Shown here one piece after another: positions 40,491 to 60,273 of a stretch of DNA of 64,000 nucleotides. The stretch spans positions 93,203 through 157,202 of the forward strand of contig NZ_AFNV02000005.1 in NCBI RefSeq assembly GCF_000215955.2. The letters are read 5' to 3'. This DNA is from Salinisphaera shabanensis E1L3A (GTDB taxonomy: Bacteria; Pseudomonadota; Gammaproteobacteria; Nevskiales; Salinisphaeraceae). The translations under genes were made by a program, and so were the position numbers. Position 1 is the stretch's first letter. Each line of letters starts with the position of its first letter. Below the pieces are notes generated by a model. That model was not told where the DNA came from and ran no database searches. It was given only the letters and a program-made list of their open reading frames with translations.

Positions 40491-41549
40491 TCAGCCCTGG
40501 GCGAGCGCGCTCTCCTGAACCTCTTCGGCGAAATGACAGGCCGCCGAGTGCTCGGGTGCCATGCTCAGCAGGCGCGGTTCGGATTCCTGGCAGAGGTCGA
40601 CGCCGCGCGGGCAGCGGCCATAGAAACGACACACGTTCGGGTCCGGATTGACCGGGCTGCGCGGATCGCCCGGCAGGTGAATCCGTTCGACCGGACTTTC
40701 CTCGATCGTGCGCGGGATGGCCGAGATCAGCGCGCGCGTGTACGGATGCGCGGCCTGTTCGAAGACCTGCTCGGCGGTGCCGGTTTCCACGATACGGCCC
40801 AGATACATCACGATCACGCGGTCGCAGAGCAGCCGCACCACGTTCAGATCGTGGGACACGAACAGATAGCTGATGCCCAGGCGCGTACGCAGATCGTCCA
40901 GCAGCTTGAGAATCACCGCCTGTACCGACACATCGAGCGCCGAGGTGGGCTCGTCGAGCACCAGCAGGCGTGGTTCGGGCGCAAGTGCCCGGGCAATGTT
41001 CACGCGCGCTTTCTGGCCGCCCGACAGCTGGTGCGGCAGCCGGTCCAGCAGCTCTTCCGGAAAACCCACATCGCGGGCCAGTTCGGCCACGCGCGGCCGG
41101 CATTCCGCTGTTGATCGTTTCTTGAGACGCCGCAACGGTTCGGCAATCGCATCGAAGGCGCTATGCCGCGGGTTGAGGCTGTCGTGCGGGTCCTGAAAGA
41201 CGACCTGGATCGCACCGCGCTCGGGGGTGCGCGCGAACGCGCGGGTATTGATGGCAGCAATATCCTTACCTTCGAACAGGATCGTGCCCGCACTGGGCTC
41301 GATCAGCCGCGTGATCAGACTCACCAGCGTCGATTTGCCACAGCCGGACTCGCCGACCAGGCCGACGCTTTCGCCCGTGCCGATGGTGAAGCTCACATCA
41401 TCGACCGCATGCAGCTTCGGCGCCGGGCGCGGCTGGTGGCGGGCCCAACCGCGCAATGCACGCATGGGCGCCGACTCGCCGTCGGAAACCGGATACAGCT
41501 TGGACAAGCCCTGGATGTCGAGCAACGGTTTTATAGCGGCCTCCGACAA
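40491..41549 (-). CDS. Peptide/nickel-type ABC transporter ATPase, second subunit (DppF-like)
   Basis: ATP-binding subunit of a dipeptide/oligopeptide/nickel-type importer. Walker A is [10 protein letters not shown], the signature is [14 protein letters not shown], and Walker B is [12 protein letters not shown]. The oligopeptide ATPase C-terminal extension follows with its cysteine pattern ([20 protein letters not shown]). The start is unclear. TTG 41549 is the nearest normal start; an ATA at 41534 would give the family-like opening [15 protein letters not shown] with a well-placed GGAGG, and TTG 41525 is another possibility. It overlaps the dppD-like gene. Confidence 0.9.
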
Positions 41550-42499
41550 GCGAAATAATGATCGGGCGCCTGCACATCGGCGTCGAAGCGCGGGCCGGGG
41601 TCGTCGCACTCGGCGACCCGGCGCGGGCAGCGCTCGGCAAACCGACAGACGGGCAGATCGGCATTGAGCGGCGGAATACGCCCGGGCACCGATTCCAGCG
41701 CATCGAGTGACGTAGTGCTGGTCGGCGTCGCCGCCATCAGGCCAGCGGTATAGGGATGTCGCGGCGCGGCAAACAAGGACGCCGTCGGCGCGGTTTCGAC
41801 GACCTGACCGGCATGCATGACCGCAATTCGGTCGGCGTACTGCGAGGCCAGGGCCAGATCATGGGTAATCAACAGCGTAGCCAGCCCGGTCTCGCGGCCA
41901 AGCTCGGCGAGCAGATCCATGATCGTGGCCTGGGTGGTCACATCCAGACCCGTGATGGGCTCGTCAGCGATCAGCAGGCGCGGCTTGCAGCACAGGGCGA
42001 TCGCGATCATCACGCGCTGACACAGCCCGCCCGACAACTCGAACGGGTAGGCATCGTAGCGGCGCGCCGGGTCGGGAATACGCACCTGTTCGAGCGCTTC
42101 GATTGCGCGCCGTTTCGCGTCGCCCCGGGCGACCGGGCCATGCCGGCGCAGCACGTCTTCAATCTGGTGGCCGACCTTGCGAATGGGGTTGAGCGCAGTC
42201 CGCGGGCTTTGAAAGATCATCGCCATTTCGCGCCCGCGTACTTCATCCAGATCGCGGCGGTTGGCGTTGAGCAGATCCATACCGCCGAACTGCACCTGTC
42301 CGTTCGGAATCCGCGCCGCATCGTCGAGAATGCCCATGATCGAAAACGCCGCGACCGACTTGCCGGAGCCGCTTTCGCCCACCACGGCCAGGGTTTCGCC
42401 GCGTGCGATCGACAGCGCCACATGGTCGAGCACATGCACCGTACCCGCCCGGCTACGAAACTCCACGCTCAGATCGGAGACCTCCAGCAACGCGCTCAT
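41531..42499 (-). CDS. Peptide/nickel-type ABC transporter ATPase, first subunit (DppD-like)
   Basis: The 322-residue ATP-binding subunit has Walker [12 protein letters not shown], signature [12 protein letters not shown], Walker [13 protein letters not shown] and H-loop [10 protein letters not shown]. The oligopeptide-type C-terminal part is [20 protein letters not shown]. Cys in the signature (GGLCQR rather than GGMRQR/GGQRQR) is unusual but tolerated. ATG 42499 overlaps the dppC-like stop by four bases. Confidence 0.93.
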
Positions 42500-43347
42500 G
42501 TGCGTCGCCTCGGGTCGATCAGATCGCGCAGCCCGTCGCCCATCATGTTGAAGCAGAACACGGCAATCATCAGCGATACGCCGGGGAAAACCGCCAGCCA
42601 CCATTCGCCGGAGACGATGAACTGGGCGCCTTCGGCGACCATGATCCCCCACTCCGGTGTCGGCGGGCGCACGCCCAGACCGATGAACGACAGCCCGGCC
42701 GCGTTCAATATCGCCCAGCCCATGTTCAACGACAGCTGCACCATCATAGCCGGCAGAATATTCGGATAGAGATGGCGCGCGAGCACGCCGATATTGCCGT
42801 TGCCGGCCACCTTGGCAGCGGCTGCGAAACCCGATTCACGGCGCACGCCGATTTCGGCACGGGCCACACGCGCATAAAACGGCAGGTTGATCACCGCGGT
42901 GGCGTAGACGATGTTCTCGACACTGTTACCCAGCACCGCGACGATGCCCATCGCCAGCACGAACAAGGGAAATGCCATCACCGTATCGATGACGCGGCCG
43001 ATCACGCGATCAGTCCAGCCGCCGTAGTAGCCAGCGAGGCTACCCAGCACGCTGCCGCCAAAAAACGCGAGCGCGACGGCCGAGAGGGCAATCATCAAGT
43101 CGAGCCGGGTGGCCACGATCACGCGGCTGAGCACATCGCGGCCCAGATGATCGGTGCCGAACCAGTGCTCGGCGGACGGCGCCATGAGCTTGATCGCGGT
43201 ATCGCTGGCCAGCGGGTCGTAGGGGGCAATCCATGGGCCGAAAGCCGCCAGCAGCACCAGAACAAAGAACATCGCAAAAGCAACAACCGTCAGCGGGTTC
43301 TCGCCGAGCACATAGCGGGCATGGGTGAATGTCGAGGCGGCAGCCAT
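42496..43347 (-). CDS. Peptide/nickel-type ABC permease (DppC-like)
   Basis: The 283-residue inner-membrane permease has five to six helices. The N-terminal pattern is FGTDHLGRDVLSR, and the EAA-like loop is FAAAAKVAGNGNIGVLARHLYPNI; it ends with SFIGLGVRPPTPEWGIMV. It starts at ATG 43347, sharing a base with the dppB-like stop (TGATG). Confidence 0.93.
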   Translation of the reverse strand: MAAASTFTHARYVLGENPLTVVAFAMFFVLVLLAAFGPWIAPYDPLASDTAIKLMAPSAEHWFGTDHLGRDVLSRVIVATRLDLMIALSAVALAFFGGSVLGSLAGYYGGWTDRVIGRVIDTVMAFPLFVLAMGIVAVLGNSVENIVYATAVINLPFYARVARAEIGVRRESGFAAAAKVAGNGNIGVLARHLYPNILPAMMVQLSLNMGWAILNAAGLSFIGLGVRPPTPEWGIMVAEGAQFIVSGEWWLAVFPGVSLMIAVFCFNMMGDGLRDLIDPRRRT

Positions 43348-44366
43348 CAGGATGCGGCCCTAATTCTGGGATCAATCACCGCGTACAGCAGGTCGATAGT
43401 CAGGTTGAGCGTAACGAACAGCAGCGCCATCGCCAGGACGAAGCCTTGGACCGCCGCGTAGTCCGATGCCACGAGCGCATCGATCGCAAACGAGCCGATA
43501 CCCGGCCAGGAAAAGACTTTCTCCACCAGCACATTCGCGCCCAGCAAAAACGAAAACACCATGCCCAGCGTCGTGAGCACCGACAGCAGCGCATTACGCA
43601 GCGCATAGGTGAACAACACCGTGCGCGTGGCCAGCCCGCTGGCACGGGCGGTGCGAATATAGTCGCTCGACAACACATCCAGCATGGCGGCCCGGGTCAT
43701 GCGCGCGATCGGGGCGAGCGCGAAGATGCCGAGTGTGAGCGCGGGCAGAAATATATGCGCCAGGCTGGCCCGGAAAACCTCGACATCCCCCGCGATGAGG
43801 CTATCGACCAGATAGAGCCCGGTGACCCGATCCGGGGCGATATGCATGAAATCCAGCCGCCCGAGCGGTGCCGGTGCCCAGCCGAGCAGGTAGTAGAAGA
43901 CATAAACCAATAACAGGCCGGTGAAGAACACCGGCATGGATACGCCGGTGGTCACAATAATCCGACAGATATGATCGACCCAGCTGTTCGGTCGCGTTGC
44001 AGCCAGTACCCCCAACGGAATTGCGACCACGATCGCGATCAGCAGACCGAGCAGGGTCAATTCGAGCGATGCCGGCAGGCGCCGGCTCAGCTCTTCGGTG
44101 ACATCGCGACCCGTGCTGAGCGACACGCCCCAGTCGCCCGCAGCCAGGCCTTCCACATAGCTTGCAAACTGCACCGGCAAGCTGCGATCCAGCCCCATCG
44201 CATGGCGCACCTGGGCAATGGATTCGGCATCCGCAGCCGGGCCCGCGTAGAACACCGCCGGATCGCCCGGCAGTGCACGCGTGAGCATAAACGTTACCAG
44301 AATCACGCCGAACAGCGTCGGCAGTGCTTCGAGCAGACGCTTGGCAATCGTGGCCAGACCGGACAT
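43347..44366 (-). CDS. Peptide/nickel-type ABC permease (DppB-like)
   Basis: The 339-residue permease has the DppB-type N-terminus (LLEALPTLFGVILVTFMLTR, LPGDPA) and a long first periplasmic loop. The cytoplasmic EAA loop is YIRTARASGLATRTVLFTYA, and the C-terminus is VFSWPGIGSFAIDALVASDY. It begins 3 bp after the substrate-binding protein stop and overlaps the dppC-like gene. The partner of DppC in a heterodimeric channel. Confidence 0.93.
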   Translation of the reverse strand: MSGLATIAKRLLEALPTLFGVILVTFMLTRALPGDPAVFYAGPAADAESIAQVRHAMGLDRSLPVQFASYVEGLAAGDWGVSLSTGRDVTEELSRRLPASLELTLLGLLIAIVVAIPLGVLAATRPNSWVDHICRIIVTTGVSMPVFFTGLLLVYVFYYLLGWAPAPLGRLDFMHIAPDRVTGLYLVDSLIAGDVEVFRASLAHIFLPALTLGIFALAPIARMTRAAMLDVLSSDYIRTARASGLATRTVLFTYALRNALLSVLTTLGMVFSFLLGANVLVEKVFSWPGIGSFAIDALVASDYAAVQGFVLAMALLFVTLNLTIDLLYAVIDPRIRAAS

Positions 44367-44369
44367 GGA

Positions 44370-45989
44370 TCAGACTTTCTTCAATGGCCGGCAATCGAGC
44401 TGGCGATGGAACCAGTACTCGTAGCCCTGCACGTTCTTCTGCATGGCCACGTCGAGGTTCGGCTGCCAAAGCGGTATCAACGGCACGTCCTCGAAAGCGA
44501 TCGCGATCATCTGCTTGATGTTCGGCACATAGGCCGGATCGTCGACCGGGATATGCAGCGTCTCGTCGACCAACGTATCGATGGTCGGATTGCTGTAGTT
44601 CATCGAGTTGAACAGATGGCCTTTCACATAGGCCCAGAAGAAGTAGTAGTCGGGATAATTGAGCCAGCCGCCGAAGTTCTTCAGGTGCATGGCCAGGCTT
44701 TTCTCGACCAGCGCCTGGGTGCGCCAGTTCGCGCCGGGAATCTTGTCGATCGGCGTGCGTATGCCGATCTTGCCCAGGCTTTCCTGGATCAGCAGCGCGG
44801 TCGGCTCGGTCCATTGCGCCAGGCCCAGATTTATTGACAGCGGCACTTCGAAACCGTTGCCGTGGCCGGCTTCTTCAAGCAGCGCACGGGCCTTGTCGAG
44901 ATCGGTGTCGTAGGGAAACGGCTGTGGCCAGTCTGCCGATGCCGGCGTAAACGACTGGCCACCGTGCATCATGCGCCCACGCCGGTAGGCCGCCGCATCG
45001 AAGATCTTTTCGTAGGGCAGCGCATAGGCAATGGCCTGGCGCACGCGCTTGTCGTCGAAAGGGGCCATTTCCACATTCAGGCCGAGCGCGTTGACACAGT
45101 TCTCGATGGGCACGCCGGCTACGTTGATCTTGTCGCTGGCATGCAGATCGGCTGCTTCCTTGGGCGGCAGATCGAGCGAGATATCGGTATCGCCGCGTTC
45201 GATGAGCGCACGGCGCGTGGACGCGGACGGCACTTCGCGGATGATTACCCGCTTGAGTGCCGGCACCTCGCCGTTCTGCCAGTCGTCGTAGCGTTCGTAG
45301 ACGGTTTGCTCGCCCGGATCCCAGCGCAGCAGCTTGTAGGCGCCACCGCCGGCCGGCGTGCGGTGCAGATAATCGGTCGCCCAGGGGTCGTCATCGGTGG
45401 CATGGGCCTTGGCCACTTCCGAATTGATGATAATCGGCACTGGCACGGCCAGATCCGGCAGCGTGAGCTTGCTCGGACGCAGGAAATTGATCTTGAAGGT
45501 GTGCTCGTCGATCACTTCGAACTGCTCGGGCTTTTCCAGCGAGCCGGCTTTCATCTGCACGGTGGGAAAGCCGCCAACGGTGACTGCACGATCGAACGAC
45601 CATTTCACGTCATGCGCGGTAATCGGCTTGCCATCCCAGAAGGTGGCTGTCTTGCGCAGATGAAATACCGCCGACATCTTGTCGTCGGCGACGTCCCAGC
45701 TTTCGGCCACTTCGGGCACGAGTGTTTCGTAGTCGTACGAGACGGTGCCGTCGTCCAGTGTTTTCGTGCCGTAGCTGAGCAATCGATCATAGAGATTGAC
45801 TGCGATCGCATAGCTGGGCCGGTTCGTACCCTCGCGATGAATATCCATGCTGTTCGGGCCGGAACCCGTAACCACGATCAGCGTTTCGCGGTTGCCAGCC
45901 GCATGGGCCGGCATGAACTTGAACAACGGCAGGCTGCCGGCCGCGCCCGCGATCAGCGCGCTGTTCTTGAGAAAGGTTCTACGATCCAT
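44370..45989 (-). CDS. Extracytoplasmic substrate-binding protein, peptide/nickel family, Tat-exported
   Basis: Solute-binding protein (SBP family 5, DppA/OppA/NikA type), 539 residues. It begins with a twin-arginine signal: M-D-R-R-T-F-L-K, then hydrophobic ALIAGAAGSLPLF and PAHAAGN. The mature part shows the family pattern (VPEVAESWDVADDKMSAVFH, PITAHDVKWSFDRAV, DKRVRQAIAYALPYEKI). The substrate is unknown. Tat export suggests folding with a cofactor or metal, or simply family habit. It is first in a five-gene operon with permeases and ATPases, and a TTGCATACA element lies about 90 bp upstream. Confidence 0.93.
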   Translation of the reverse strand: MDRRTFLKNSALIAGAAGSLPLFKFMPAHAAGNRETLIVVTGSGPNSMDIHREGTNRPSYAIAVNLYDRLLSYGTKTLDDGTVSYDYETLVPEVAESWDVADDKMSAVFHLRKTATFWDGKPITAHDVKWSFDRAVTVGGFPTVQMKAGSLEKPEQFEVIDEHTFKINFLRPSKLTLPDLAVPVPIIINSEVAKAHATDDDPWATDYLHRTPAGGGAYKLLRWDPGEQTVYERYDDWQNGEVPALKRVIIREVPSASTRRALIERGDTDISLDLPPKEAADLHASDKINVAGVPIENCVNALGLNVEMAPFDDKRVRQAIAYALPYEKIFDAAAYRRGRMMHGGQSFTPASADWPQPFPYDTDLDKARALLEEAGHGNGFEVPLSINLGLAQWTEPTALLIQESLGKIGIRTPIDKIPGANWRTQALVEKSLAMHLKNFGGWLNYPDYYFFWAYVKGHLFNSMNYSNPTIDTLVDETLHIPVDDPAYVPNIKQMIAIAFEDVPLIPLWQPNLDVAMQKNVQGYEYWFHRQLDCRPLKKV

Positions 45990-46271: not shown

Positions 46272-46310
46272 CATCTTCGCGACGCTGCAGGGGACAGCGT
46301 CTACAACCGG

Positions 46311-47132: not shown

Positions 47133-47135
47133 GGC

Positions 47136-49027: not shown

Positions 49028-50137
49028 CTATCCCCCAAACAAGGCCAGGTCTGGCGCGTAGAAACCGCGCCCGGCCAATCCACCGTCCGGCGTATCCGCA
49101 ACCATGGCCAGATGCACAAGCGGCACCCGCCCGCTTGCCGCAATGCGATGACGACAGACCAAACCGGTCGCCGCATCGCAGACCGCCTCGGCCCGCGTGT
49201 CGGCATCTGTCGGTAACAGCTCGTGCCAGGCGTCAACTAGGGCGGGCGCGAAAGTGAGCGCCTGGCCGCCCAGACCACAAAAATCGATCACCGGACTGTC
49301 GCCAACCGCGCCCAGCACCGGTATTTGTTCGCAATCGGTCATACGGACGCCGGTCGGCGCGCCGGCGCCCGTCGTGCGCCAGGCTTTTTCGCCCGCGAAG
49401 CGCACGCCGAAGCAGCGGCCATTGCCACCCACCGACGCGATCGAGCCGCCGTGTTTGTGCATTGCCCAGGCACTTGCCGCCATCAGAATCGGCAAGACAA
49501 AGTTGGCGTTCGCGGCAATCGATTCGCGGTAGTCGTGCGGCAAGTCATTCAGCACGAACAGCAGGCGATCGTTGGCTACCGCAGTACGGGCATGGCATTC
49601 GTCGCCGGCCACCAGCGACACATCGATCCAGTCGCACACCGGCAACGGCACCGCGGCCAAACGGGGTGCCAGTACATCGAACGCCCATTCGGCCTGTTGA
49701 CGCAGATGGCTCACACAGATGTCGTCTGCCGAACCAAAACGCAGCGCTGGCGGCGCGCTTTCGGCGATGGGCGCCAACATGTCGTGGCCGTCGTCGCCCA
49801 CTTGAAAGACCGGCATCGCGGTCGACACCACCTGGGCCAGCGGCGTGACCACGCCGTGGTCCTGAGCCGGCGCCAGCTGAACCGCACCGGCGTCAATCGC
49901 TTCGGCGGCTTCGTCAGCCGTTCTGCCGGCATAGACGAGCGCGTGGATGGCCGCATTGCGTAACGGATACGACAGCGCGCGCGTATCAAGCGGCGGGCCG
50001 GCATGCAGCAGCACATCGTCGCCGAGCGCCGGGCGTACATCGCCGAGCCGCGCGACGCCACGCAGACGGGCGCCCTCGAAAAGCGCGGCCATCTGTGCGC
50101 GCTTGGCCTCAAGCCGGTTTGCGACAACAGCGCTCAT
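49028..50137 (-). CDS. DUF1116 protein, AllG/YlbE-like
   Basis: The 369-residue protein resembles the E. coli YlbE/AllG family (DUF1116): DVLLHAGPPLDTRALSYPLR near residue 40, GAVQLAPAQDHGVVTPLAQ, then SLVAGDECHARTAVAN. AllG is a subunit of the AllFGH oxamate carbamoyltransferase that acts at the end of allantoin breakdown. FdrA/AllF and AllH-type genes are not visible in the window, so it either acts alone, pairs with a remote partner, or has a new role. ATG 50137 overlaps the CoxG-like stop (ATGA), so it is the last gene of the molybdenum-hydroxylase operon. Confidence 0.8.
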   Translation of the reverse strand: MSAVVANRLEAKRAQMAALFEGARLRGVARLGDVRPALGDDVLLHAGPPLDTRALSYPLRNAAIHALVYAGRTADEAAEAIDAGAVQLAPAQDHGVVTPLAQVVSTAMPVFQVGDDGHDMLAPIAESAPPALRFGSADDICVSHLRQQAEWAFDVLAPRLAAVPLPVCDWIDVSLVAGDECHARTAVANDRLLFVLNDLPHDYRESIAANANFVLPILMAASAWAMHKHGGSIASVGGNGRCFGVRFAGEKAWRTTGAGAPTGVRMTDCEQIPVLGAVGDSPVIDFCGLGGQALTFAPALVDAWHELLPTDADTRAEAVCDAATGLVCRHRIAASGRVPLVHLAMVADTPDGGLAGRGFYAPDLALFGG

Positions 50138-52098: not shown

Positions 52099-54442
52099 GC
52101 GCCGCCTCCAATGCCGCGATCACCCGTTCGGGGCTGATCGGCACGCTATGAATCTCGGCGCCCAGGCCGCCCAGCGCATCGTTGACCGCATTGGTGATCG
52201 CCGCGGGCGGCGCAATCGCCCCGCCTTCGCCGATACCTTTCTGGCCGAACGTGCTGAACGGACTCGGCGTTTCCATATGCTCGATAGTGAGATGCGGCAT
52301 TTCGGCCGCGCCCGGCACCATGTAGTCGGCCAGCGTCGAGGCCAATGGTTGGGCTTCGTCGTCGAAGGGTATTTCCTCGTAGAGCGCAGTACCGATGCCC
52401 TGGGCCAGGCCGCCGAGCAGCTGGCCTTCGACCACCATCGGGTTGAGCAGCACGCCGCCGTCTTCGCAGATGGCGTAGTCGAGCAGCTTGACCGCGCCGG
52501 TGACGGTATCCACCTCGACCGCGCACGCATGGGTGGCATAGCTGAATGTGCCCATATCCGGGCGCATCTTGTAGCCGGCAACGAGGCCGAGCCCGGCCGG
52601 GTCGACGTCGTCCGGCAACAGCTGCGGCGCGCGATACCAGGTATGCGCGATGTCGGCAAGCGTCATCGAACGGCTGCGATCGCCGCTGACCACACCGCCA
52701 TTTTCGAAGATCAGATCGTCCGCTGCGACGTCCATCAAGTGGCTGGCCAGACGACGCACGCGATCGGCGAGTTTTTCACAGGCGGCAGCGACCGCGCCGC
52801 CTGACATCACGGCATTGCGCGAGCCCCAGGTCCCGGTGGAATACGGCGAACCGCCGGTATCGCCGTGCATGATGCGCACCTGTTCCGGGTCGATACCCAG
52901 CACGGTGTTCGCGACCTGGGCCATGGTTGTTTCCATGCTCTGGCCATGCGAATGCGCGCCGATCTGAAGTTCGAGAATGCCGTCGGTGGTCACGCGCGCA
53001 TTGCACTGCTCGTAGCCGGGCACCATCGGAATGCCCCAGCCGTGGTAGACCGACGTGCCGTGGGCGCCCTGTTCACAGAACGTGGCCAGGCCCAGGCCGA
53101 TCCGCTTGCGGCCATTGGTTTCGGCCTGGCGCGCGCGCCAGCCGGACCAGTCGAGCGCTTCGACCGCGCGATGCATGCAGGCGATATAGTCGCCGGAGTC
53201 GAACAGCTTGTTCGTGATGTTCGTATAGGGCATGTCGTCGGGGCCGACGAGACTGCGCTCGCGCAGCTCGAACGGCTCGATGCCCAGCTCGCGGGCGGCG
53301 ATATCCAGCATCACCTCCAGCGCGAAACACACGCCGGTGCGGGCCACGCCGCGATACGGCAGGATCGGCGGCTTGTTGGTCGCCGCCGAGCGCGTATGAC
53401 AGCTGTAGCTGTCCATCTTGTACGGCCCGGGGAGAATCGAGCCGATCTGGGCCGCTTCCAGACAGGCCGAAAACGGATATGACGAATAGGCGCCCGAATC
53501 CACGATAGCATCGCAGTCGATGCCGGCCAGCCGGCCGCTACGCTCGACGTGCACGCTGATGTCGTAGGCGTGTTCGCGACAGTTGGCATTGGCCGACAGA
53601 TGCTCGTTTCGATCCTCGATCCACCGGATCGGGCGATCGAGCTTCATCGCCAGCCACGCACAACAGATTTCTTCGGGCAGCAGAATGCCCTTGTAGCCGA
53701 ACCCGCCGCCCACGTCGGGCGAGACGACGCGTACCTGGCCTTCATCCAGGCCCAGGCATTCGGCCAGGCCGGTTCGGTTGATATGCGGCATCTGTGCCGC
53801 GCTGGTCATTTCCAGGCGATTGAGCCGATGGTCCCACCAACAGACGACGCCGCGGCCTTCCAGCGGCACCTGACACTGTCGCGAAGTGGACAATTGCCGG
53901 CGCACGCTCACGACGTCGTCAGCTATGCCCGCCTTATTGTCGACTTGGGTTTCCAGGAAAACGTTGGAATCCCAGTGCTCGTGCAGCTTGCCTTCGGCCG
54001 TCCCGTTGGCCGCGGCATGCATATCCGAAACGACCGGCAGGTCTTCGTAATCGACGAACACCTGCTCGGCCAGATCCTCGGCACGGGCGCGACTGGGTGC
54101 CACACACATGGCCACCATTTCGCCGACGAAACGGACCTTGTCCTTTGCCAGCGGATACTGCTCGGATTTCTGAAAGCCGGGCAGCTTGGAGGCGGCAACA
54201 ATCGGCTTCACCTCGGCCATATCGGCCATGGTGTAGACCAGCGATTCCCAGCCTTCCGGTTTTTCGATGTCCACGATGCGGGCATGGGCCACCGGCGCAC
54301 GTACGAACGCCACGTCCAACATGCCGGGGCGCCGGATATCGGCCACGAACTCGCCCCGGCCACTCAGAAAACGCGCATCTTCCTTGCGCGCGAGCCGGGC
54401 GCCGATGCCCTTGGCCTGGGTGTCGGGCGGGGCGCCGGTCAT
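52085..54442 (-). CDS. Molybdenum hydroxylase large subunit (molybdopterin, CoxL/XDH type)
   Basis: The 785-residue catalytic subunit has the aldehyde oxidase/xanthine dehydrogenase fold: an a/b hammerhead start (GARLARKEDARFLSGRGEF), then DVGGGFGYKG, the active-site loop PYRGVARTG, and the C-terminal catalytic Glu in KGIGEGGAIAPPAA. The form I carbon monoxide dehydrogenase loop with its cysteine is absent, so CO oxidation is unlikely. Hydroxylation of a carbon next to nitrogen in a heterocycle or an aldehyde is more probable. ATG 54442 overlaps the amidohydrolase stop (ATGA). Confidence 0.93.
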   Translation of the reverse strand: MTGAPPDTQAKGIGARLARKEDARFLSGRGEFVADIRRPGMLDVAFVRAPVAHARIVDIEKPEGWESLVYTMADMAEVKPIVAASKLPGFQKSEQYPLAKDKVRFVGEMVAMCVAPSRARAEDLAEQVFVDYEDLPVVSDMHAAANGTAEGKLHEHWDSNVFLETQVDNKAGIADDVVSVRRQLSTSRQCQVPLEGRGVVCWWDHRLNRLEMTSAAQMPHINRTGLAECLGLDEGQVRVVSPDVGGGFGYKGILLPEEICCAWLAMKLDRPIRWIEDRNEHLSANANCREHAYDISVHVERSGRLAGIDCDAIVDSGAYSSYPFSACLEAAQIGSILPGPYKMDSYSCHTRSAATNKPPILPYRGVARTGVCFALEVMLDIAARELGIEPFELRERSLVGPDDMPYTNITNKLFDSGDYIACMHRAVEALDWSGWRARQAETNGRKRIGLGLATFCEQGAHGTSVYHGWGIPMVPGYEQCNARVTTDGILELQIGAHSHGQSMETTMAQVANTVLGIDPEQVRIMHGDTGGSPYSTGTWGSRNAVMSGGAVAAACEKLADRVRRLASHLMDVAADDLIFENGGVVSGDRSRSMTLADIAHTWYRAPQLLPDDVDPAGLGLVAGYKMRPDMGTFSYATHACAVEVDTVTGAVKLLDYAICEDGGVLLNPMVVEGQLLGGLAQGIGTALYEEIPFDDEAQPLASTLADYMVPGAAEMPHLTIEHMETPSPFSTFGQKGIGEGGAIAPPAAITNAVNDALGGLGAEIHSVPISPERVIAALEAAHESD

Positions 54443-55710
54443 GCCGAGGCTTGGGCCGGCGTGAACTGGGGCAGCGTGGGCGCGTCGGCATCGAAACGCT
54501 CGCCCGCGCGCAGACAAAAGCGCGGCGTGAGCATGCGCTCGGCGCTCACGCGATGGCCTTCGTTATCGCGCAGCGTCCATTGGCCGCGCTCGTCGTTGAG
54601 TACCGACACGTCCGCGACCGCGCCCGGCTTGAGATGGCCGATCTCGTCGGCCATGCCGAGCAGGGCCGCCGCATTGGAGGTCACCATCGGCACGACCTGA
54701 TCGAGCGTGAGCCCCAGCGCGAGCATGCTGGTCATCGCCGAGGTCAGCGAAAACCGTACCGCGCCCGCGAACATGTGATCGCCTTCTTCGGGGTCGGAAT
54801 GGATATCCGGCGTGCCCGGCGGCGGCGCGATACGCGTGTTGTAGCCGTGCATGTCGGCGCCGAGGGTGTTGGGCACGATGCCGGCATCGAGCACCTTGCG
54901 AGCGACATCAAAGCTGAAGTGCGAGCCGTGGCCCACATCGATCTTCACGCCCTTTTCGATCACGTCGCGAATGAGCTCATGGACCTTGCCGTGCTTGTCC
55001 ACAAAACCACCGGGATGACGGGTGAACGGATGCGCGAGCACGTCGCCCGGCTTCACCAGTTCGAGCACGCTCGGAAAGATGGTGTCCGGATCGATATCCA
55101 TCGGATCTTCCGGCGACGGCCAGAGCTGGCCGAAGTGCAGATAGACCGGCATGCGCGACTGCCGCCCGATCTGGGCCGCGAGCTTGATCACATCCATGCC
55201 CCAGCGCTGGAAACCGCCCAACTCGGCGTGCGCCTTGATCCCCTTCACCAAATCAGGATTCGCGTCGACCGCCTTGGCGGTGGCATCGATATCCAGACAC
55301 TCCGGCTGATAGAGCTGCGGGTAGTAGTGCCCTTCCAGCCCGCCAACGAGATAGGCCGAGATGAAGGCGAGCACACGCGTTTTCGCCGGCTCGGCGATGA
55401 AATGGCGAAAGCCCGGCAGCGTCATACAGCTCGGCCCGCCTTGGTCGACCAGCGTGGTCACGCCCGAGCGCACGCCAACCATATCCGGATCGAGACCGAA
55501 GCGGCCGGTCACATAGCGATAGATATGGGCATGCGTATCGATCATGCCCGGCAAAACGAGATTGCCCGTACAGTCGATAACCTCGGCGTCCGAAGCATAG
55601 GGTGCGTTCAGACCGGTAACAATACCGTTCTGTATGACCAGGTCGGCCTGTTCATCCGTACCCGTCACCGGGTCCACGACCCGACCGCCTTTCAACACCG
55701 TTGTCGACAT
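54439..55710 (-). CDS. Amidohydrolase, deacetylase/cyclic-amidohydrolase type
   Basis: Metal-dependent amidohydrolase (TIM barrel) of 423 residues. An N-terminal HxH pair (GMIDTHAHIYRYV, H60 and H62), then GIKAHAELGG with a possible bridging Lys, YLHFG, VLAHPFTRHPGG and NTLGADMHG follow; these supply the expected metal ligands. Related enzymes open cyclic amides or remove acyl groups. ATG 55710 has CAGGAG upstream. It is the first gene of an operon with the molybdenum hydroxylase, which suggests it acts on the hydroxylated ring product. The substrate is unknown. Confidence 0.85.
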   Translation of the reverse strand: MSTTVLKGGRVVDPVTGTDEQADLVIQNGIVTGLNAPYASDAEVIDCTGNLVLPGMIDTHAHIYRYVTGRFGLDPDMVGVRSGVTTLVDQGGPSCMTLPGFRHFIAEPAKTRVLAFISAYLVGGLEGHYYPQLYQPECLDIDATAKAVDANPDLVKGIKAHAELGGFQRWGMDVIKLAAQIGRQSRMPVYLHFGQLWPSPEDPMDIDPDTIFPSVLELVKPGDVLAHPFTRHPGGFVDKHGKVHELIRDVIEKGVKIDVGHGSHFSFDVARKVLDAGIVPNTLGADMHGYNTRIAPPPGTPDIHSDPEEGDHMFAGAVRFSLTSAMTSMLALGLTLDQVVPMVTSNAAALLGMADEIGHLKPGAVADVSVLNDERGQWTLRDNEGHRVSAERMLTPRFCLRAGERFDADAPTLPQFTPAQASA

Positions 55711-55774
55711 TCTGGCTCCTGCATCTTGCGATCTGCGATACCCAGAGAGCGCAAGGCCTATGCCAATACACGAC

Positions 55775-55786
55775 GTTGCATACAAC
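55775..55786. promoter_or_regulatory. Palindromic operator candidate GTTGCATACAAC
   Basis: A 12-bp near-palindrome (arms GTTG/CAAC) between the AT-rich promoter area and the start of the amidohydrolase gene. The same sequence, reverse-complemented, occurs at 58480-58491 upstream of the amidase operon and hpxW-like gene. Size and symmetry suit a MarR dimer, and a marR gene lies in between. Confidence 0.6.
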
Positions 55787-55895
55787 ATATGACACGTAAG
55801 TAACTAATATATATTGTTTTAAATATTTATAAATTAAGTGGCACACCCCTCACTAGGCGATGACTGGGCGCCGAACGCCAACTGCCTCGTGCTCT

Positions 55896-55920: not shown

Positions 55921-56069
55921 TGGGGAATTTATGTGGCGCACCTCACATATCGATGCGGCACGACCCGGGTCGCCGTACGCTCAGTGCATCGCCGGCAAAC
56001 GATCGGGGGATTCGATGCCCGGCCCCGCCCCAACCACTGGTTGCGAGACGACGCGGCAGAACAGGCGTG

Positions 56070-56570
56070 CTAACGCAGCCGAAACGGGACGGTGCCCATC
56101 TCGTTGTTCGCCTCCACCAGGCGCGCCAGATACAGGACCAGCAGGTCGCGATCCGGCCCGGCGAGGGCTTCGACCGTGCGCTCGTGGGCGCGCTGTACCG
56201 CAGCGGTCATCTGCTGCACGTGCTGGCGCCCTTTATGGGTGGCGCGGGTCAGGCGTACGCGCCCGTCTTCAGTACTCTGCCGGCGTTCGACCAGTTCGCG
56301 CTGCTCAAGCCGACGCAGCACCTCGCCTACGCTCGTGCGTTCCAACCCGATCTCGTGGGCCAGCGTCATCTGATCCAACTCGCCGTGTTCGGCCAGCGCG
56401 GTGAGCACGCTGTATTGCACCGGGGTGATATTGAATCCCTCGGTTTCCTTGGTGAACAGCGCGCTATGAATCTGGTGCAGCCGACGAATCAGAAACCCGG
56501 GGCGAACCAGCAGCGGCGACCGCTCTTCGATAGCAGCCAGTTCTTCGGAAACATCGACAGGATCGGGCAT
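56070..56570 (-). CDS. MarR-family transcriptional regulator
   Basis: The 166-residue regulator has the MarR winged helix: ITPVQYSVLTALAEHGELDQ, then LAHEIGLERTSVGEVLRRLEQ and the wing VERRQSTEDGRVRLTRATHKG. It lies in the same orientation after the amidase and HpxZ-like genes, with a 140-bp gap to the latter. It is the best candidate for controlling the catabolic island through the repeated GTTGTATGCAAC element, probably relieved by a pathway intermediate; that is inference from position. Confidence 0.92.
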   Translation of the reverse strand: MPDPVDVSEELAAIEERSPLLVRPGFLIRRLHQIHSALFTKETEGFNITPVQYSVLTALAEHGELDQMTLAHEIGLERTSVGEVLRRLEQRELVERRQSTEDGRVRLTRATHKGRQHVQQMTAAVQRAHERTVEALAGPDRDLLVLYLARLVEANNEMGTVPFRLR

Positions 56571-56710
56571 GGCAATGGAACACGCGTGGGAAGGGGGCCG
56601 GCGATGCCGCGACAGTCCAAAAGCCCGAACCGGGGCCGGTGATCGCGAATCGACGGGCGGTCGGTCGGCGCTGCATCGGCGACCGACTCACCCGGCGTTT
56701 TACACACCCA

Positions 56711-57112
56711 TCAATTCTTTGGCAACGCAGACACGTGCGCCGAGACCACTCGCCAGCCCGCCTCGAAGCGCACCCAGCACTGGCTTTGCCGGCCGATCGA
56801 GACGCCGTCCGCACCGTCGCGCTCGAATTCGACACTGGCGGTGGCGAAATCCTCGCCGAACGTCGTAATTGCGATATGCCGTATCCGGCGATCGAGATTC
56901 GCAGGACTGCGTGACTTGCGAAACGCCTGGATCTCGTCGTAACCATAGAGCATTTCGGTCGCCCCGAAGCGCACCGTGTGCTCGCTGGTCCAGAACAGTT
57001 CGTCGAGCGTATCGATATCGTTACCGGTGAGCGCGGCTTCATAGCGCATGAGCGCATCCGTGACTTCGGCGACCACATCGCGCCGGTTGACCTGTTCGAG
57101 CGACTGACTCAT
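56711..57112 (-). CDS. hpxZ: HpxZ/AtzH-like DUF3225 protein
   Basis: The 133-residue protein has a SnoaL-like cone fold (DUF3225): EVTDALMRYEAALTGNDID, then LDELFWTSEHTVRFGATE, YGYDEIQAFRKSRS and FERDGADGVSIGRQSQCWVR. AtzH/HpxZ proteins are encoded with amidases of oxalurate, cyanuric acid or biuret breakdown and assist them, possibly as a subunit. ATG 57112 overlaps the amidase stop (ATGA), which fits a functional pairing. HpxZ is the name used for oxalurate catabolism; the true pathway here is not proved. Confidence 0.85.
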   Translation of the reverse strand: MSQSLEQVNRRDVVAEVTDALMRYEAALTGNDIDTLDELFWTSEHTVRFGATEMLYGYDEIQAFRKSRSPANLDRRIRHIAITTFGEDFATASVEFERDGADGVSIGRQSQCWVRFEAGWRVVSAHVSALPKN

Positions 57113-58323
57113 GCCGGCACCGCCTTGGGCGGCACCGGGGCCTGCGGACACACACGACGGGCCAGTTCAATCAGGCGCATATCGCCGTTTCGACGCGTCA
57201 TGATCGATAGCCCCAACGGCAGACCGTCCTTCATCGCCAACGGCAGGTTCATCTGCGGCAAGCCGGCCAGCCCGGCGCTGCACAGCAACGACATCGCTTG
57301 GTAGCGATAGGTGGTTTCCAGTGCCTCATCCGTAGCGCCGCGCGGCGGCGCGGGACGCGGTGTCGTGGGCAGGACCACGACATCGTCTTCGCCGATCAGC
57401 GCGTCGAGCCGCTTAACAATCTCGGCGCGATGGGCCTGGGCTTCGCGCAGCTGCGCGGCGTTGATCTGCCCGGCCTGTTCGATACGCTCGCGCACACCGG
57501 GGCCAAGCGTGGGACGAGTTTGTGCGACCCAATCACCCAGCGCGTCCCAGACATCGGCGGCCTGGATGATACGAAAGGTCTCGAACCATTCGGCCAGGCC
57601 GTCTTCGGCCAGCTGTATTTCCTGCATTCGATCGGCCTGCGCACCGAGCGTTTCCAGCGCCGGCAAGAAGGCGGCCGCGATTTCCGTATCCACCGCTTCG
57701 AAGGCGTCGGTGGCAATCAATACACGCTTGAAAGCGCCCTGCTCCCGGGCATCCGGCAAGAGCACGCGCCCGACCCGTTCGAAGATATGGGCATCGCGGG
57801 CGAACCAGCCGATGCAATCGAACTGGCTGGCAAAGCGCAGCAAACCGCGCGTGGCGACCCGGCCATGGGTCGTGCGCAGGCCGAGCAGGCCGCAATAACT
57901 CGACGGCACCCGCACCGAACCACCGCAATCCGTACCCAGCGCGAAATCCACCAGCCCGGCACATACCGCCGCCGCCGAGCCACTGGAGGAGCCGCCGGCC
58001 AGGCGGCCGAGGCCCCAGCTGTTCGCCGGGGCACCGTAATGGATATTGTCACCCGTCAACGAGTAGCACAGCTCATCGGAAATCGTACGACCGACCAGTT
58101 CCCCGCCAGCCGCCAACAGGCGATCGATGCAATCGGCATTGGTATCCGCCGGCGGGTGCGAAGCCAGCCACTGCGGCTGGCCGAACCCGGTCCGCGTACC
58201 GGCAATATCGAATACATCCTTGACCGCAAAAAGCAGCCCACTGAGCACGCCCTCGCCCGTCGGTGCCAGGGCCGCCGGATTGTCGCGACAAAAGGCACCG
58301 ACCGTATGGAGCGTAGTGCTCAT
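57109..58323 (-). CDS. Amidase-signature hydrolase (AtzF/HpxY-like)
   Basis: Amidase of 404 residues with a Ser-Ser-Lys triad: K35 (FAVKDVFDIAG), cis-Ser112 in GGSSSGSAAAV, and nucleophile Ser136 in TDCGGSVRVPSSYCG. The short length and the AtzF-like N-terminus place it near allophanate and oxalurate hydrolases. With hpxZ downstream and an HpxW-like gene divergent, oxalurate hydrolysis to oxamate is plausible. ATG 58323 overlaps the stop of a small upstream frame. An in-frame open extension of 113 codons upstream is not included, because it looks non-coding and contains the operator. Confidence 0.88.
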   Translation of the reverse strand: MSTTLHTVGAFCRDNPAALAPTGEGVLSGLLFAVKDVFDIAGTRTGFGQPQWLASHPPADTNADCIDRLLAAGGELVGRTISDELCYSLTGDNIHYGAPANSWGLGRLAGGSSSGSAAAVCAGLVDFALGTDCGGSVRVPSSYCGLLGLRTTHGRVATRGLLRFASQFDCIGWFARDAHIFERVGRVLLPDAREQGAFKRVLIATDAFEAVDTEIAAAFLPALETLGAQADRMQEIQLAEDGLAEWFETFRIIQAADVWDALGDWVAQTRPTLGPGVRERIEQAGQINAAQLREAQAHRAEIVKRLDALIGEDDVVVLPTTPRPAPPRGATDEALETTYRYQAMSLLCSAGLAGLPQMNLPLAMKDGLPLGLSIMTRRNGDMRLIELARRVCPQAPVPPKAVPA

Positions 58324-58436
58324 CGCTGGCCTGCCCACGGCCGGCCGCAATAATCCGGCGCAGCGGCCACGATATTCGCGCCGTACGCGCGCTTCACCGT
58401 CGAAGTGGACCGTCTTCGCAAGCAGGTCGATGCCAC
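58320..58436 (-). CDS. Possible 38-codon coupled leader peptide before the amidase gene
   Basis: GTG 58436 lies six bases after the strong ribosome site AAAGGAG (58442-58448). The frame runs 38 codons (opening VASTCLRRRSTSTVKRAYGA) and its TGA overlaps the amidase ATG as ATGA. The product is basic and matches no family I know; the small AtzG/HpxX-type protein expected next to such amidases is different in composition. It could be a leader that couples translation, or chance. Confidence 0.3.
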   Translation of the reverse strand: MASTCLRRRSTSTVKRAYGANIVAAAPDYCGRPWAGQR

Positions 58437-58689
58437 AACACTCTCCTTTCGCCGTCACAAGCGAGCAGTTGAACGCGTCGTTGTATGCAACGCCTATGCC
58501 ATGTAATGATCTGCGACCGAACGATGTCTCGACGCATTGCCTGGTGGTGCGGACAGGTGTCTGCAGGTCGAAAGCCACCAACTGAGGCCAGCATGCGCGC
58601 GTCGCATCCGTCATCATTTCGCGGCGACGCACTATCAACTCGGGCGTGAGCCGGTATGGCAACGCCGCTAGTCATTGAGGACGTTATCT
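58324..58689. promoter_or_regulatory. Divergent control region between amidase operon and hpxW-like gene
   Basis: The 366-bp gap holds the operator GTTGTATGCAAC (58480-58491) and, on the minus strand, the ribosome site AAAGGAG (58442-58448). On the minus strand TTACAT and TACAAC near the operator could form a weak promoter, so a bound repressor would block it. On the plus strand TTGAGG (58675-58680) acts as the hpxW-like ribosome site. Confidence 0.5.
58480..58491. promoter_or_regulatory. Palindromic operator candidate GTTGTATGCAAC
   Basis: Exact reverse complement of the element at 55775-55786. Each copy also has the 10-mer GCCTATGCCA close by (58492-58501 and 55756-55765). It lies about 30 bp upstream of the ribosome site of the amidase leader and 199 bp before the hpxW-like start, so it can serve both directions. 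Confidence 0.6.
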
Positions 58690-60273
58690 ATGCTGCAAAG
58701 CGCGAAAGGCCGTTACGGCTGTGTCACCGCCCCTCATCTATCCGCCGCGCTCGCCGGGCGCGACGTGCTCGCTGCTGGCGGCAATGCCATTGAAGCCATG
58801 GTGGCCAGCGCGGCAACTATCGCCGTGGTCTATCCGCATATGAATTCGATCGGCGGCGACGGCTTCTGGCTGATCAAGAAACCCGGTCAGGCGACGATCG
58901 GCATTTCCGCTTGCGGTCGGGCTGCGGCGCTGGCTACGCCGGACTGGTATGCCGAGCACGGTCATCGCGACCAGATCCCGGCGCGCGGCGCGCAGGCCGC
59001 GCTGACCGTACCGGCGACGATCGCCGGATGGCAGGCTGCGCTGAACCAGCTCGAACGCGAGCCGATGGCGCTGGAGACCCTGCTCGCGCCGGCGATCGCG
59101 CATGCCCGCGAGGGCTTTGTGACCACCGGCAATCAAGCTGCCTGCACCGCCGCCAAGGCGAACGAGCTGCGCGATGTGCCCGGTTTTGCGGGTATTTTTC
59201 TGCCCAACGGCCACGTCCCGCGCGAGGGCGACATCTTCGTTCAGAACGCGCTTGCCAATACGCTCGAGACGCTGGCGCGCGAAGGGCTCGACAGCTATTA
59301 CACCGGTTCGCTGGCGGCAACGCATGGCGCCTATCTGGAGGCCATGGGGTCGCCGCTGCGTACATCCGACCTCGCACAATGCGCGGCCGAACTCGTCGCC
59401 CCGCTGTCGACGGAACTGTCGGTGGGCACGATCTACAATATGCCGCCGCCCACCCAGGGCGTGTCGTCGTTGATGATTCTGGCCCTGTTCGACCGTTTGA
59501 AGGTGGCCGAAGCCGAGGGCTTCGATCATCTGCACGGGCTGATCGAGGCGACCAAGCAGGCTTTCCTGATCCGCAACGCGGAACTGGGCGACCCCGACCA
59601 TATGACGCGCCCGGCCGAATCGTGGCTGGAGGCCGCGTATCTCGATGAACTGCATGCCGCGATCGACCCGCGCAAGGCCCTGGACTGGCCCTACGAAGCC
59701 AAACGCGGCGATACCATCTGGATGGGTGCGACCGACCGCGACGGCACCATGGTGAGCTTCATTCAGAGCGTGTTCTGGGAGTTCGGCTCGGGGCTGACCT
59801 GTCCCGACACTGGCGTGGCGTTCCAGAATCGCGGTGCCGGTTTCTCCCTGGCCCCGGGCGCCAACCAGCTCGCGCCCGGCAAGCGCCCGTTCCATACCCT
59901 CAACCCCGCCATGGCCGAACTTAATGACGGGCGCGTGATGGCTTACGGCACCATGGGCGGCGAAGGTCAGCCGCAGACGCAGGCCGCAGTCTTCTCGCGC
60001 TATGCGATGTACGGTCAGGGCCTGCAACGCGCGGTGACCGCACCACGCTGGCTGCTCGGCAAGACCTGGGGCGATGCCACCACCAGCCTCAAGCTGGAGA
60101 ATCGTTTCGATCCGGCGCTGGTGGAAGAACTCATCGCCACCGGCCATCAGGTCGAGATGATCGATGCGTTCTCCGATCTGGCTGGCCACGCGGGCGCGGT
60201 GGTGCGTCACCCCGAGGGCTATTGCGAAGGTGCGAGCGATCCGCGTGCCGATGGCGGCGCGGTCACGCTCTAG
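58690..60273 (+). CDS. Gamma-glutamyltransferase-fold hydrolase, HpxW (oxamate amidohydrolase)-like
   Basis: Ntn-hydrolase of 527 residues that cleaves itself to create an N-terminal Thr. The predicted nucleophile is T342 in KRGDTIWMGATDRDG, where true gamma-glutamyltransferases carry a TTH-type motif. The Gly-rich NSIGGDGFWLI and the TMGGEGQPQTQAAVF region match the family. The GDT-IWMG form resembles HpxW, the oxamate amidohydrolase of Klebsiella purine breakdown. No signal peptide is visible, in contrast with periplasmic Ggt. ATG 58690 has TTGAGGA ten bases upstream; TTG 58675 also opens the frame. The HpxY- and HpxZ-like genes are divergent. Confidence 0.85.
   Translation: MLQSAKGRYGCVTAPHLSAALAGRDVLAAGGNAIEAMVASAATIAVVYPHMNSIGGDGFWLIKKPGQATIGISACGRAAALATPDWYAEHGHRDQIPARGAQAALTVPATIAGWQAALNQLEREPMALETLLAPAIAHAREGFVTTGNQAACTAAKANELRDVPGFAGIFLPNGHVPREGDIFVQNALANTLETLAREGLDSYYTGSLAATHGAYLEAMGSPLRTSDLAQCAAELVAPLSTELSVGTIYNMPPPTQGVSSLMILALFDRLKVAEAEGFDHLHGLIEATKQAFLIRNAELGDPDHMTRPAESWLEAAYLDELHAAIDPRKALDWPYEAKRGDTIWMGATDRDGTMVSFIQSVFWEFGSGLTCPDTGVAFQNRGAGFSLAPGANQLAPGKRPFHTLNPAMAELNDGRVMAYGTMGGEGQPQTQAAVFSRYAMYGQGLQRAVTAPRWLLGKTWGDATTSLKLENRFDPALVEELIATGHQVEMIDAFSDLAGHAGAVVRHPEGYCEGASDPRADGGAVTL

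What the first reader, a model, noticed from the sequence alone, without database searches (positions are those of the whole stretch)
40491..60273. Candidate uncharacterised catabolic island for an N-heterocycle or ureide
Two importers, a molybdenum hydroxylase, a cyclic-amidohydrolase-like enzyme, an AllG-like protein, an amidase with HpxZ, a MarR regulator and an HpxW-like hydrolase lie together. A route can be imagined from a ring compound through hydroxylation and ring opening to oxalurate or oxamate and finally oxalate and ammonia. No known operon that I can name has this exact combination.
Basis: inference. Interest (0 to 1): 0.75.

Follow-up and report, generated by a model that had tools for sequence, protein, structure and literature searches.

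The report
Unassigned nitrogen-ring breakdown gene island
An 18-kb block of bacterial genes, whose core recurs in many other proteobacteria and which shares a rare DNA box with this genome's uric-acid genes, likely lets the cell import a small nitrogen-containing ring compound, still unidentified, and break it down, probably to ammonia and oxalate.

Summary
In detail: every named part is there. Amidohydrolase (AH), three-subunit molybdenum hydroxylase, CoxG and AllG-like genes overlap one another like one operon; amidase and HpxZ overlap; MarR, two ABC importers and a divergent HpxW complete the set. The piece 40438-58677 is a discrete unit, missing in a sister genome that keeps HpxW. In 87 AH loci from alpha-, beta- and gammaproteobacteria the core recurs (68 with full flanks: Mo hydroxylase 57, MarR 58, AllG 35). 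The oxidase can be swapped: five loci without the Mo hydroxylase carry a Rieske oxygenase-reductase pair. AllG (35) and an alpha/beta-hydrolase (17) never co-occur. MarR-type operators precede AH and, in other genomes, an importer. A 12-bp box (GTTGYATRCAAC) occurs four times in this 3.76-Mb genome: before AH, between amidase and HpxW, before a nucleobase-type importer, and between cyanuric-acid-hydrolase and urate-oxidase genes. This supports N-heterocycle/ureide catabolism. Substrate and route (ring oxidation, ring opening, oxamate, oxalate) remain inferred. Against a textbook oxalurate pathway: AllH and HpxX were not found, the amidase is not AtzE/HpxY-type, and amidase, HpxZ and HpxW are optional. 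A conserved catabolic regulon not found described in my paper searches; new variant of a known kind.

The parts
40491..41531 (-). DppF-like ABC importer ATPase (start codon uncertain)
41531..42499 (-). DppD-like ABC importer ATPase
42496..43347 (-). DppC-like permease
43347..44366 (-). DppB-like permease
44370..45989 (-). solute-binding protein family 5 of the dipeptide-type importer
   Evidence: PF00496; the same importer stands beside AH + AllG in L037
46311..47132 (-). solute-binding protein family 3 (polar-amino-acid type)
   Evidence: PF00497
47136..48782 (-). fused permease-ATPase of the polar-amino-acid-type importer
   Evidence: PF00528 + PF00005 in one 548-aa ORF
49028..50137 (-). AllG-like protein (DUF1116); no AllH found in the genome
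   Evidence: PF06545; sole match in the genome; AllH not found
50134..50778 (-). CoxG / SRPBCC protein
   Evidence: PF06240
50768..51286 (-). Mo hydroxylase 2Fe-2S subunit
   Evidence: PF01799
51283..52098 (-). Mo hydroxylase FAD subunit
   Evidence: PF00941
52085..54442 (-). Mo hydroxylase large subunit; closest solved chain by score is quinoline 2-oxidoreductase
   Evidence: P[YF]RGVAR in 72 of 74 large subunits, form-I CoxL motif in 0 of 74
54439..55710 (-). AH, cyclic-amidohydrolase-like enzyme of the Atu3266/cog3964 type
   Evidence: NF006689 over cut-off; six metal-ligand positions invariant in 87 of 87; model matches
55775..55786 (.). 12-bp box GTTGYATRCAAC in the AH promoter
55832..55855 (.). 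second, weaker MarR-type operator candidate
   Evidence: 10.3 bits, not significant alone
55927..55950 (.). MarR-type operator candidate upstream of AH
   Evidence: 21.3 bits; best of 20 shuffled windows 20.1
56070..56570 (-). MarR regulator
   Evidence: PF01047
56711..57112 (-). HpxZ / AtzH-like
   Evidence: NF033625 over cut-off; AtzH pocket residues kept by eye
57109..58323 (-). amidase (NF006169)
   Evidence: 487.7 bits, cut-off 391; PF01425
58480..58491 (.). 12-bp box GTTGYATRCAAC in the divergent amidase/HpxW promoter
   Evidence: same place in G187 and G195
58690..60273 (+). HpxW-like Ntn hydrolase (gamma-glutamyltranspeptidase family)
   Evidence: PF01019; best PDB match 5hft over both subunits

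Best explanation
This is a conserved catabolic gene island that is predicted to import a small N-heterocycle, oxidise its ring, open the ring with the metal-dependent amidohydrolase AH, and strip the opened, likely ureide-type chain to oxamate, from which HpxW would release ammonia and leave oxalate. Steps as I see them. (1) Uptake by one of two ABC importers (inferred). (2) Hydroxylation by the Mo hydroxylase, or in other lineages by a Rieske oxygenase or perhaps a luciferase-like flavin monooxygenase (the swap is shown, the chemistry inferred). (3) Hydrolytic ring opening by AH with a binuclear metal site (ligand pattern shown, substrate inferred; a hydantoin/parabanate-type five-membered ring giving oxalurate is my best guess). 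(4) Removal of the carbamoyl end by the AllG-like protein and/or amidase + HpxZ, HpxZ removing the carboxylate of the resulting carbamate as proposed for AtzH (inferred). (5) Oxamate to oxalate + NH3 by HpxW (inferred from similarity). Control is by the island's MarR on the AH operon (operator candidates shown, binding inferred) and by a second, unnamed regulator at GTTGYATRCAAC shared with urate / cyanuric-acid genes (sites shown, factor inferred).
For: Overlapping AH-MoL-MoM-MoS-CoxG-AllG genes. Conserved content in 87 AH loci (86 fetched plus the window); of 68 with full flank: MoL 57, MarR 58, AllG 35; amidase in 14 and HpxW in 9, always with AllG; HpxZ in 17, 16 with AllG. Gene order differs between lineages. 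Oxidase swap: Rieske oxygenase + reductase in 5 of the 68 loci, none with MoL. AllG versus alpha/beta-hydrolase: 35 and 17 loci, no overlap, 16 with neither. Distances of AH and its partners correlate, r 0.62-0.86 (related lineages inflate this). MarR-type operators before AH and MarR, and, at 20 bits or more, before SBP3 in four other loci and PhyH in one, and as a pair before AH in G000, G187 and G195. Box at four places in 3.76 Mb, chance expectation 0.38: two in the island, two at purine/triazine-type genes. Nearest solved Mo enzyme by score is quinoline 2-oxidoreductase. HpxW matches 5hft over both subunits. HpxZ keeps the AtzH pocket residues named in PMC6219798 (by eye).
Against: Amidase, HpxZ and HpxW are optional within about 10 kb of AH; many loci have only AH + Mo hydroxylase + AllG + importer, the 17 loci with the alpha/beta-hydrolase have none of AllG, HpxZ, amidase, HpxW over my thresholds, and 16 of 68 have neither AllG nor that hydrolase. 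HpxW stays in G171, G189 and G194, where AH was not found (G189 is 85% complete). AllH and AtzG/HpxX were not found; the amidase is far below the AtzE cut-offs. No oxalyl-CoA decarboxylase over cut-off, so an oxalate sink is unclear. No MarR-type operator at the amidase/HpxW promoter, and the window's own operator barely exceeds the best shuffled score. In G187 and G195 the 12-bp box is found only at amidase/HpxW, not at AH or elsewhere. Solved AH relatives carry names or, as recalled, activities other than ring ureide hydrolysis.
Confidence: 0.5

Rival explanations
1. AH is an acyclic N-acyl hydrolase (deacetylase type) and the Mo enzyme an aldehyde oxidase; the island degrades an acylated amino compound, not a ring.
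For: AH belongs to NF006689, 'amidohydrolase/deacetylase'; the best-scoring NCBIfam models of the Mo large subunit include glyceraldehyde dehydrogenase at 519.6 bits, all below cut-off; an acetamidase/formamidase-family protein is in some loci; the alpha/beta-hydrolase that replaces AllG has a lipase (9n8r) as best PDB match and kynurenine formamidase as third.
Against: Closest solved Mo enzyme is quinoline 2-oxidoreductase, 512.9 bits, against 299.4 for 4zoh (4zoh being the glyceraldehyde enzyme is recalled); the shared box links the island to uricase and cyanuric acid hydrolase; AtzH, the studied HpxZ relative, is reported to act on a ureide-type carbamate (PMC6219798 passages).
Confidence: 0.2
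2. A pyridine-, pyrimidine- or benzo-fused-ring pathway: two ring hydroxylations give a cyclic imide, AH opens it, the amidase removes the amide; oxamate is not involved and HpxW/HpxZ are later add-ons.
For: A second, divergent Mo hydroxylase stands near AH in L014 and L019 (in L014 it is the only one seen); amidase, HpxZ and HpxW are optional; a phenol-hydroxylase-type gene near the Caballeronia cluster has a matching operator.
Against: Three separate families each tied to oxalurate/oxamate (AllG, HpxZ, HpxW) accumulate in one cluster; the box ties the island to urate/ureide genes in this genome.
Confidence: 0.2
3. The neighbours serve separate substrates: HpxW (and perhaps amidase-HpxZ) belongs to urate/ureide breakdown, AH-Mo-AllG to another compound, and they lie together by chance of insertion.
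For: HpxW persists without the rest in three genus members; the MarR-type operator is at AH only.
Against: HpxW and amidase sit in one run with AH and AllG in L023, L025 and L030, and HpxW follows AH in L026, L029, L040; among the 68 AH loci HpxW is found only where AllG is, 9 of 9; the 12-bp box marks both promoters in the window.
Confidence: 0.1

Closest known systems
hpxWXYZ oxalurate/oxamate genes of Klebsiella
   Same: HpxW matches 5hft over both subunits (that 5hft is the Klebsiella HpxW is recalled) and HpxZ is over its curated cut-off
   Different: no HpxX/AtzG found, amidase of another family, joined to a Mo hydroxylase, AH and AllG
AllFGH oxamic transcarbamylase of E. coli (PMC11326118: abstract and passages seen)
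   Same: AllG-family protein
   Different: AllG stands without AllH: AllH not found in the own genome nor in 20 other cassette genomes
AtzDGEHF cyanuric acid operon (PMC6219798: passages seen)
   Same: amidase + AtzH-like pair; an AtzD-family gene elsewhere in this genome shares the 12-bp box
   Different: ring opening here would be by a metal amidohydrolase, after an oxidation; no AtzG found and no AtzE-type amidase in the cluster
Atu3266/cog3964 amidohydrolases (PDB 2ogj, 2ics, 8wzy, 8je0)
   Different: only 24-30% identity in those alignments; the cassette clade has a Mo/Rieske oxidase context
Quinoline 2-oxidoreductase-type Mo hydroxylases
   Same: closest solved large subunit by score
   Different: substrate unknown; a separate CoxG protein and the AH/AllG context

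Membership tests
HpxWXYZ oxalurate/oxamate pathway | HpxW (oxamate amidohydrolase) orthologue | tested here: met
   by sequence only; activity not tested
HpxWXYZ oxalurate/oxamate pathway | HpxZ equivalog | tested here: met
   NF033625 182 against cut-off 135
HpxWXYZ oxalurate/oxamate pathway | HpxY: AtzE-family amidase over cut-off | tested here: not met
   185.6 against 461 and 182.7 against 425.75, (that HpxY is AtzE-type is recalled)
HpxWXYZ oxalurate/oxamate pathway | HpxX / AtzG small subunit | tested here: not met
   PF13318 best 14.7 bits, cut-off 24, on another contig; no control genome was over the cut-off either, so there was no positive control
AllFGH oxamic transcarbamylase | AllG family protein | tested here: met
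   PF06545
AllFGH oxamic transcarbamylase | AllH in the same genome | tested here: not met
   0 of 1 and 0 of 20; E. coli control positive in both
AllFGH oxamic transcarbamylase | AllF (FdrA) | not tested
   no specific model was searched
Atu3266/cog3964-type amidohydrolase (NF006689) | score over curated cut-off | tested here: met
   406.5 against 371
Atu3266/cog3964-type amidohydrolase (NF006689) | HxH, Lys, two His, Asp metal-ligand pattern | tested here: met
   87 of 87, (ligand roles recalled from the superfamily)
aerobic CO dehydrogenase (form I CoxL) | AYxCSFR active-site loop | tested here: not met
   0 of 74, (motif recalled)
xanthine dehydrogenase | score over XDH equivalog cut-offs | tested here: not met
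   376.4 against 780, 350.7 against 916, 187.6 against 849.5
insertable genomic module | occupied and empty site in sister genomes | tested here: met
   G171 lacks window 40438-58677 between colinear flanks; gain or loss not resolved
N-heterocycle catabolic regulon | shared operator-like box with known N-heterocycle genes | tested here: met
   in this genome only; binding not tested
N-heterocycle catabolic regulon | turnover of a ring substrate | not testable with these tools
   needs enzyme assays

The most novel reading that the evidence does not exclude
An undescribed oxidative route for a small N-heterocycle (hydantoin/imidazole-type ring), spread over three classes of proteobacteria: three unrelated oxygenases (Mo hydroxylase, Rieske, flavin-luciferase type) feed one ring-opening amidohydrolase, and the opened ureide is cut either by a stand-alone AllG that works as a hydrolase without AllF/AllH or, in Bradyrhizobium-type clusters, by an unrelated alpha/beta-hydrolase, ending in oxamate and oxalate. 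This would give the orphan cog3964 subfamily and lone AllG proteins their physiological function.
Probability: 0.3. Interest if true: 0.78.

Novelty: new variant of a known kind. Interest (0 to 1): 0.6.

Why it matters
The core cassette (AH + oxidase + MarR, often AllG) was found in Burkholderiales, Bradyrhizobium, Azospirillum, Methylobacterium, pseudomonads and marine gammaproteobacteria, though it was in only 1 of 185 sampled genomes of the window's own class. Nine literature searches of the held library (listings, plus passages of four papers) showed no described operon like it. Knowing its substrate would assign functions to several families at once (cog3964 amidohydrolases next to Mo hydroxylases, stand-alone AllG, HpxZ with a non-AtzE amidase) and would point to a nitrogen source used in several habitats. 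The swaps (Mo to Rieske; AllG to alpha/beta-hydrolase) and the box shared with uricase make the question directly testable.

Tried and rejected
Rejected: AllG-like as part of AllFGH transcarbamylase (no AllH found). The Mo enzyme as CO dehydrogenase or xanthine dehydrogenase. The amidase as HpxY/AtzE and a hidden HpxX/AtzG (without a positive control). Oxalate use through oxalyl-CoA decarboxylase (three sub-threshold matches; all 14 control genomes ring too, so only the cut-off is informative).

Led nowhere: the best LivK solved relatives are mostly called amino-acid or urea binding proteins and do not name a ligand. Foldseek/VIA give the family, not the substrate. No paper on cog3964 function or on a bacterial operator like GTTGYATRCAAC turned up (only the listings were read, and 25 of 47 papers were listed). 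The alpha-type operator is absent from the window. AH is rare in the class: 1 of 185 sampled genomes, the own one.

Cautions. The 80 loci are the best of at least 350, so counts are conditional on AH and lean to close relatives. L008-L011 were left out of the counts (fetched through AllG or a 41% AH). In the AH alignments L069 and L081 were left out because the matched stretch held a stop, and other loci were left out for size: A2 has 41 and A3, the one modelled, 36 sequences. Identity thresholds were chosen by me. In one search the window's own proteins failed to load as queries; searches used a corrected set. The operator matrix was trained on sites before AH, so those hits are circular; the informative ones are hits elsewhere. 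Shuffled windows reached 20.1 bits, so hits below about 20 bits (LivK in L020 and L053, MoL in L044, AllG in L020 and others) may be chance; LivK in L055 (21.2) and MoL in L019 (20.7) share a divergent promoter with AH or MarR. Some searches of the Mo large subunit and AllG used starts a few residues off the final ones.
Full report
WHAT IS THERE. The finding's parts are all real. Family searches name, on the - strand: amidase (NF006169, over cut-off), HpxZ (NF033625, over cut-off), MarR, an amidohydrolase AH (NF006689, over cut-off), a Mo hydroxylase of three subunits, CoxG, an AllG-family protein (PF06545), a fused permease-ATPase with a family-3 binding protein, and a dipeptide-type ABC importer; on the + strand an HpxW-like Ntn hydrolase. 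From AH to AllG each gene overlaps the next by a few bases, and amidase overlaps HpxZ, so these are very likely two operons.

A DISCRETE UNIT. In sister genome G171 the flanks of the window are colinear up to base 40437 and again from 58678; the 18.2 kb between are missing. HpxW, just outside, is present there. G189 shows the same left flank and HpxW on its short contig, with other genes to the right. AH is in 3 of 14 genus genomes, G000, G187, G195; HpxW at 87% identity or more is in 6 of 14. In G187 and G195 the genes HpxW / amidase-HpxZ-MarR-AH-Mo follow the same order in other surroundings, except that in G187 genes matching window 26.3-31.0 kb lie beyond the dipeptide importer; the G195 contig ends inside the Mo genes. 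So the island is gained or lost as a piece, and HpxW can remain without it. Base composition of the island does not stand out. AH was in 1 of 185 sampled genomes of the class, the own one.

CONSERVATION. Plasmid hits led to the same set in Caballeronia, Paraburkholderia, Azospirillum, Pacificitalea and, in part, Methylobacterium and Geminicoccaceae. Azospirillum has AH, Mo hydroxylase, CoxG, AllG, HpxZ, amidase, MarR and HpxW, in another order and with another importer. A scan of genomes returned 80 more AH loci out of at least 350. With six plasmid loci and the window that makes 87; 68 have full flanks. Among these 68: MoL 57, MarR 58, branched-chain-type importer 41, AllG 35, CoxG 24, HpxZ 17, alpha/beta-hydrolase 17, amidase 14, family-3 binding protein 13, PhyH 9, HpxW 9, dipeptide-type binding protein 7. 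Amidase and HpxW never occur without AllG; HpxZ does so once. AllG and the alpha/beta-hydrolase never occur together; 16 loci have neither. Pairwise distances of AH correlate with those of MoL (74 loci, r 0.78), AllG (39, 0.62), HpxZ (19, 0.81), amidase (17, 0.84) and HpxW (9, 0.86), 0 of 999 permutations reaching each; shared ancestry of the hosts contributes to this.

THE OXIDASE IS INTERCHANGEABLE. Eleven of the 68 loci lack MoL. Five of them (L023, L024, L030, L053, L055: Pseudomonas, Marinobacterium, Amphritea, two Alloalcanivorax) carry a Rieske oxygenase with a VanA-type C-terminal domain plus its reductase; the other four are 79-86% and 49-68% identical to the L030 pair, and none of the 57 MoL loci has it at my threshold. 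Luciferase-like flavin monooxygenases are in three further loci without MoL (L020, L032, L061), but also in two with it (L004, L066). L014 has only a divergent Mo hydroxylase (35%), and L019 has that one and the normal one. L035 and L037 have none of these. I read this as different oxidations delivering the substrate of AH.

CO-REGULATION. In non-alphaproteobacterial loci a palindrome around GTGGTGTACCAC lies before AH and MarR; scanning with its matrix also gives strong hits (20 bits or more) before SBP3 in L002, L007, L032 and L047 and before PhyH in L032, and weaker or shared-promoter hits before LivK, MoL and AllG. In many alphaproteobacterial loci another palindrome, AATACGAAGCATGCTTCGTATT, lies mostly 60-70 bases before AH. 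In the window the best-scoring places in 64 kb are two sites before AH; with a symmetrised matrix they score 21.3 and 10.3, while 20 shuffled windows reached at most 20.1, so the first is marginal and the second not significant alone; but both orthologous promoters have strong pairs (G187 27.7 and 25.8; G195 31.1 and 27.1) and the fetched stretches of the HpxW-only genomes have none. A second palindrome, GTTGYATRCAAC, occurs in the window exactly twice: before AH (55775) and between amidase and HpxW (58480). In the whole 3.76-Mb genome it occurs at four places, against 0.38 expected from base composition and 0 for the reversed pattern. The other two are on contig C34: just before a BMP-type binding protein (by eye) with a PF02653 permease of a nucleobase-type importer, and between an AtzD-family cyanuric acid amidohydrolase (NF052395, over cut-off; the box overlaps the first codons of its longest ORF, so the gene must start further in) and OHCU decarboxylase - urate oxidase - hydroxyisourate hydrolase (all over cut-off) - xanthine-dehydrogenase-like subunits (below cut-off) - an XdhC-like gene (by eye) - an HpxW paralogue. 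G187 and G195 have one box each, at the amidase/HpxW promoter; three other genus members have one each at apparently unrelated places; eight have none; the reversed control pattern occurs once, in G196. So in this genome the island looks like part of the urate/ureide/triazine-type regulon; that link is not shown in the relatives.

HOW IT MOST LIKELY WORKS. Import; oxidation of a ring carbon; hydrolytic ring opening by AH; removal of the carbamoyl end of the opened chain by AllG-like and/or amidase + HpxZ; oxamate to oxalate + ammonia by HpxW. A hydantoin-to-parabanate-to-oxalurate scheme fits the tail enzymes best, but nothing here shows the substrate. The optional status of the tail enzymes and their absence from the alpha/beta-hydrolase loci argue that the core (oxidase + AH + AllG or alpha/beta-hydrolase) already yields something usable, so the oxamate end may be one of several.

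VERDICT. Observation confirmed; interpretation partly supported and strengthened by the shared box; textbook oxalurate membership not met. A conserved, apparently undescribed catabolic regulon: new variant of a known kind.

Noticed in passing
own genome contig C34 about 40000-92000 (L134-L136, L127): Large purine/urate/triazine-type catabolic region: allantoinase, RutB/BiuH-like hydrolases (below cut-off), formamidase, 8-oxoguanine deaminase, AtzD, OHCU decarboxylase, uricase, HIU hydrolase, xanthine-dehydrogenase-like genes, HpxW paralogue, BMP- and NMT1-type importers (by eye); two GTTGYATRCAAC boxes.
   Followed up: partly
47136-48782: Permease and ATPase of the polar-amino-acid-type importer are fused in one 548-aa ORF.
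   Followed up: no
17 loci such as L005, L051, L067, L072, L074, L090 (Bradyrhizobium, Methylobacterium and relatives): Version of the cassette with an alpha/beta-hydrolase and, in many, a small Rieske protein instead of AllG/HpxZ/amidase/HpxW, many with their own palindromic operator.
   Followed up: partly
L008, L009, L010: AllG-family proteins beside ring-hydroxylating Rieske oxygenases and, in Ruegeria and Paracoccus, an amidase, with no AH annotated in the stretch; the Rhodococcus ruber plasmid adds formate dehydrogenase and malate synthase G.
   Followed up: no
L014 and L019: A divergent Mo hydroxylase with NMT1-type binding protein and acetamidase/formamidase-family gene near AH.
   Followed up: no
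60342-63864: Right flank: glutamate-racemase-like gene (TIGR00067 over cut-off), a ferredoxin-reductase-type protein and a desaturase-like ORF (not checked by family search); syntenic in G171.
   Followed up: no
L002:544-2487: A phenol-hydroxylase-type monooxygenase gene near the Caballeronia cluster has a strong MarR-type operator match (23.0 bits) upstream.
   Followed up: no
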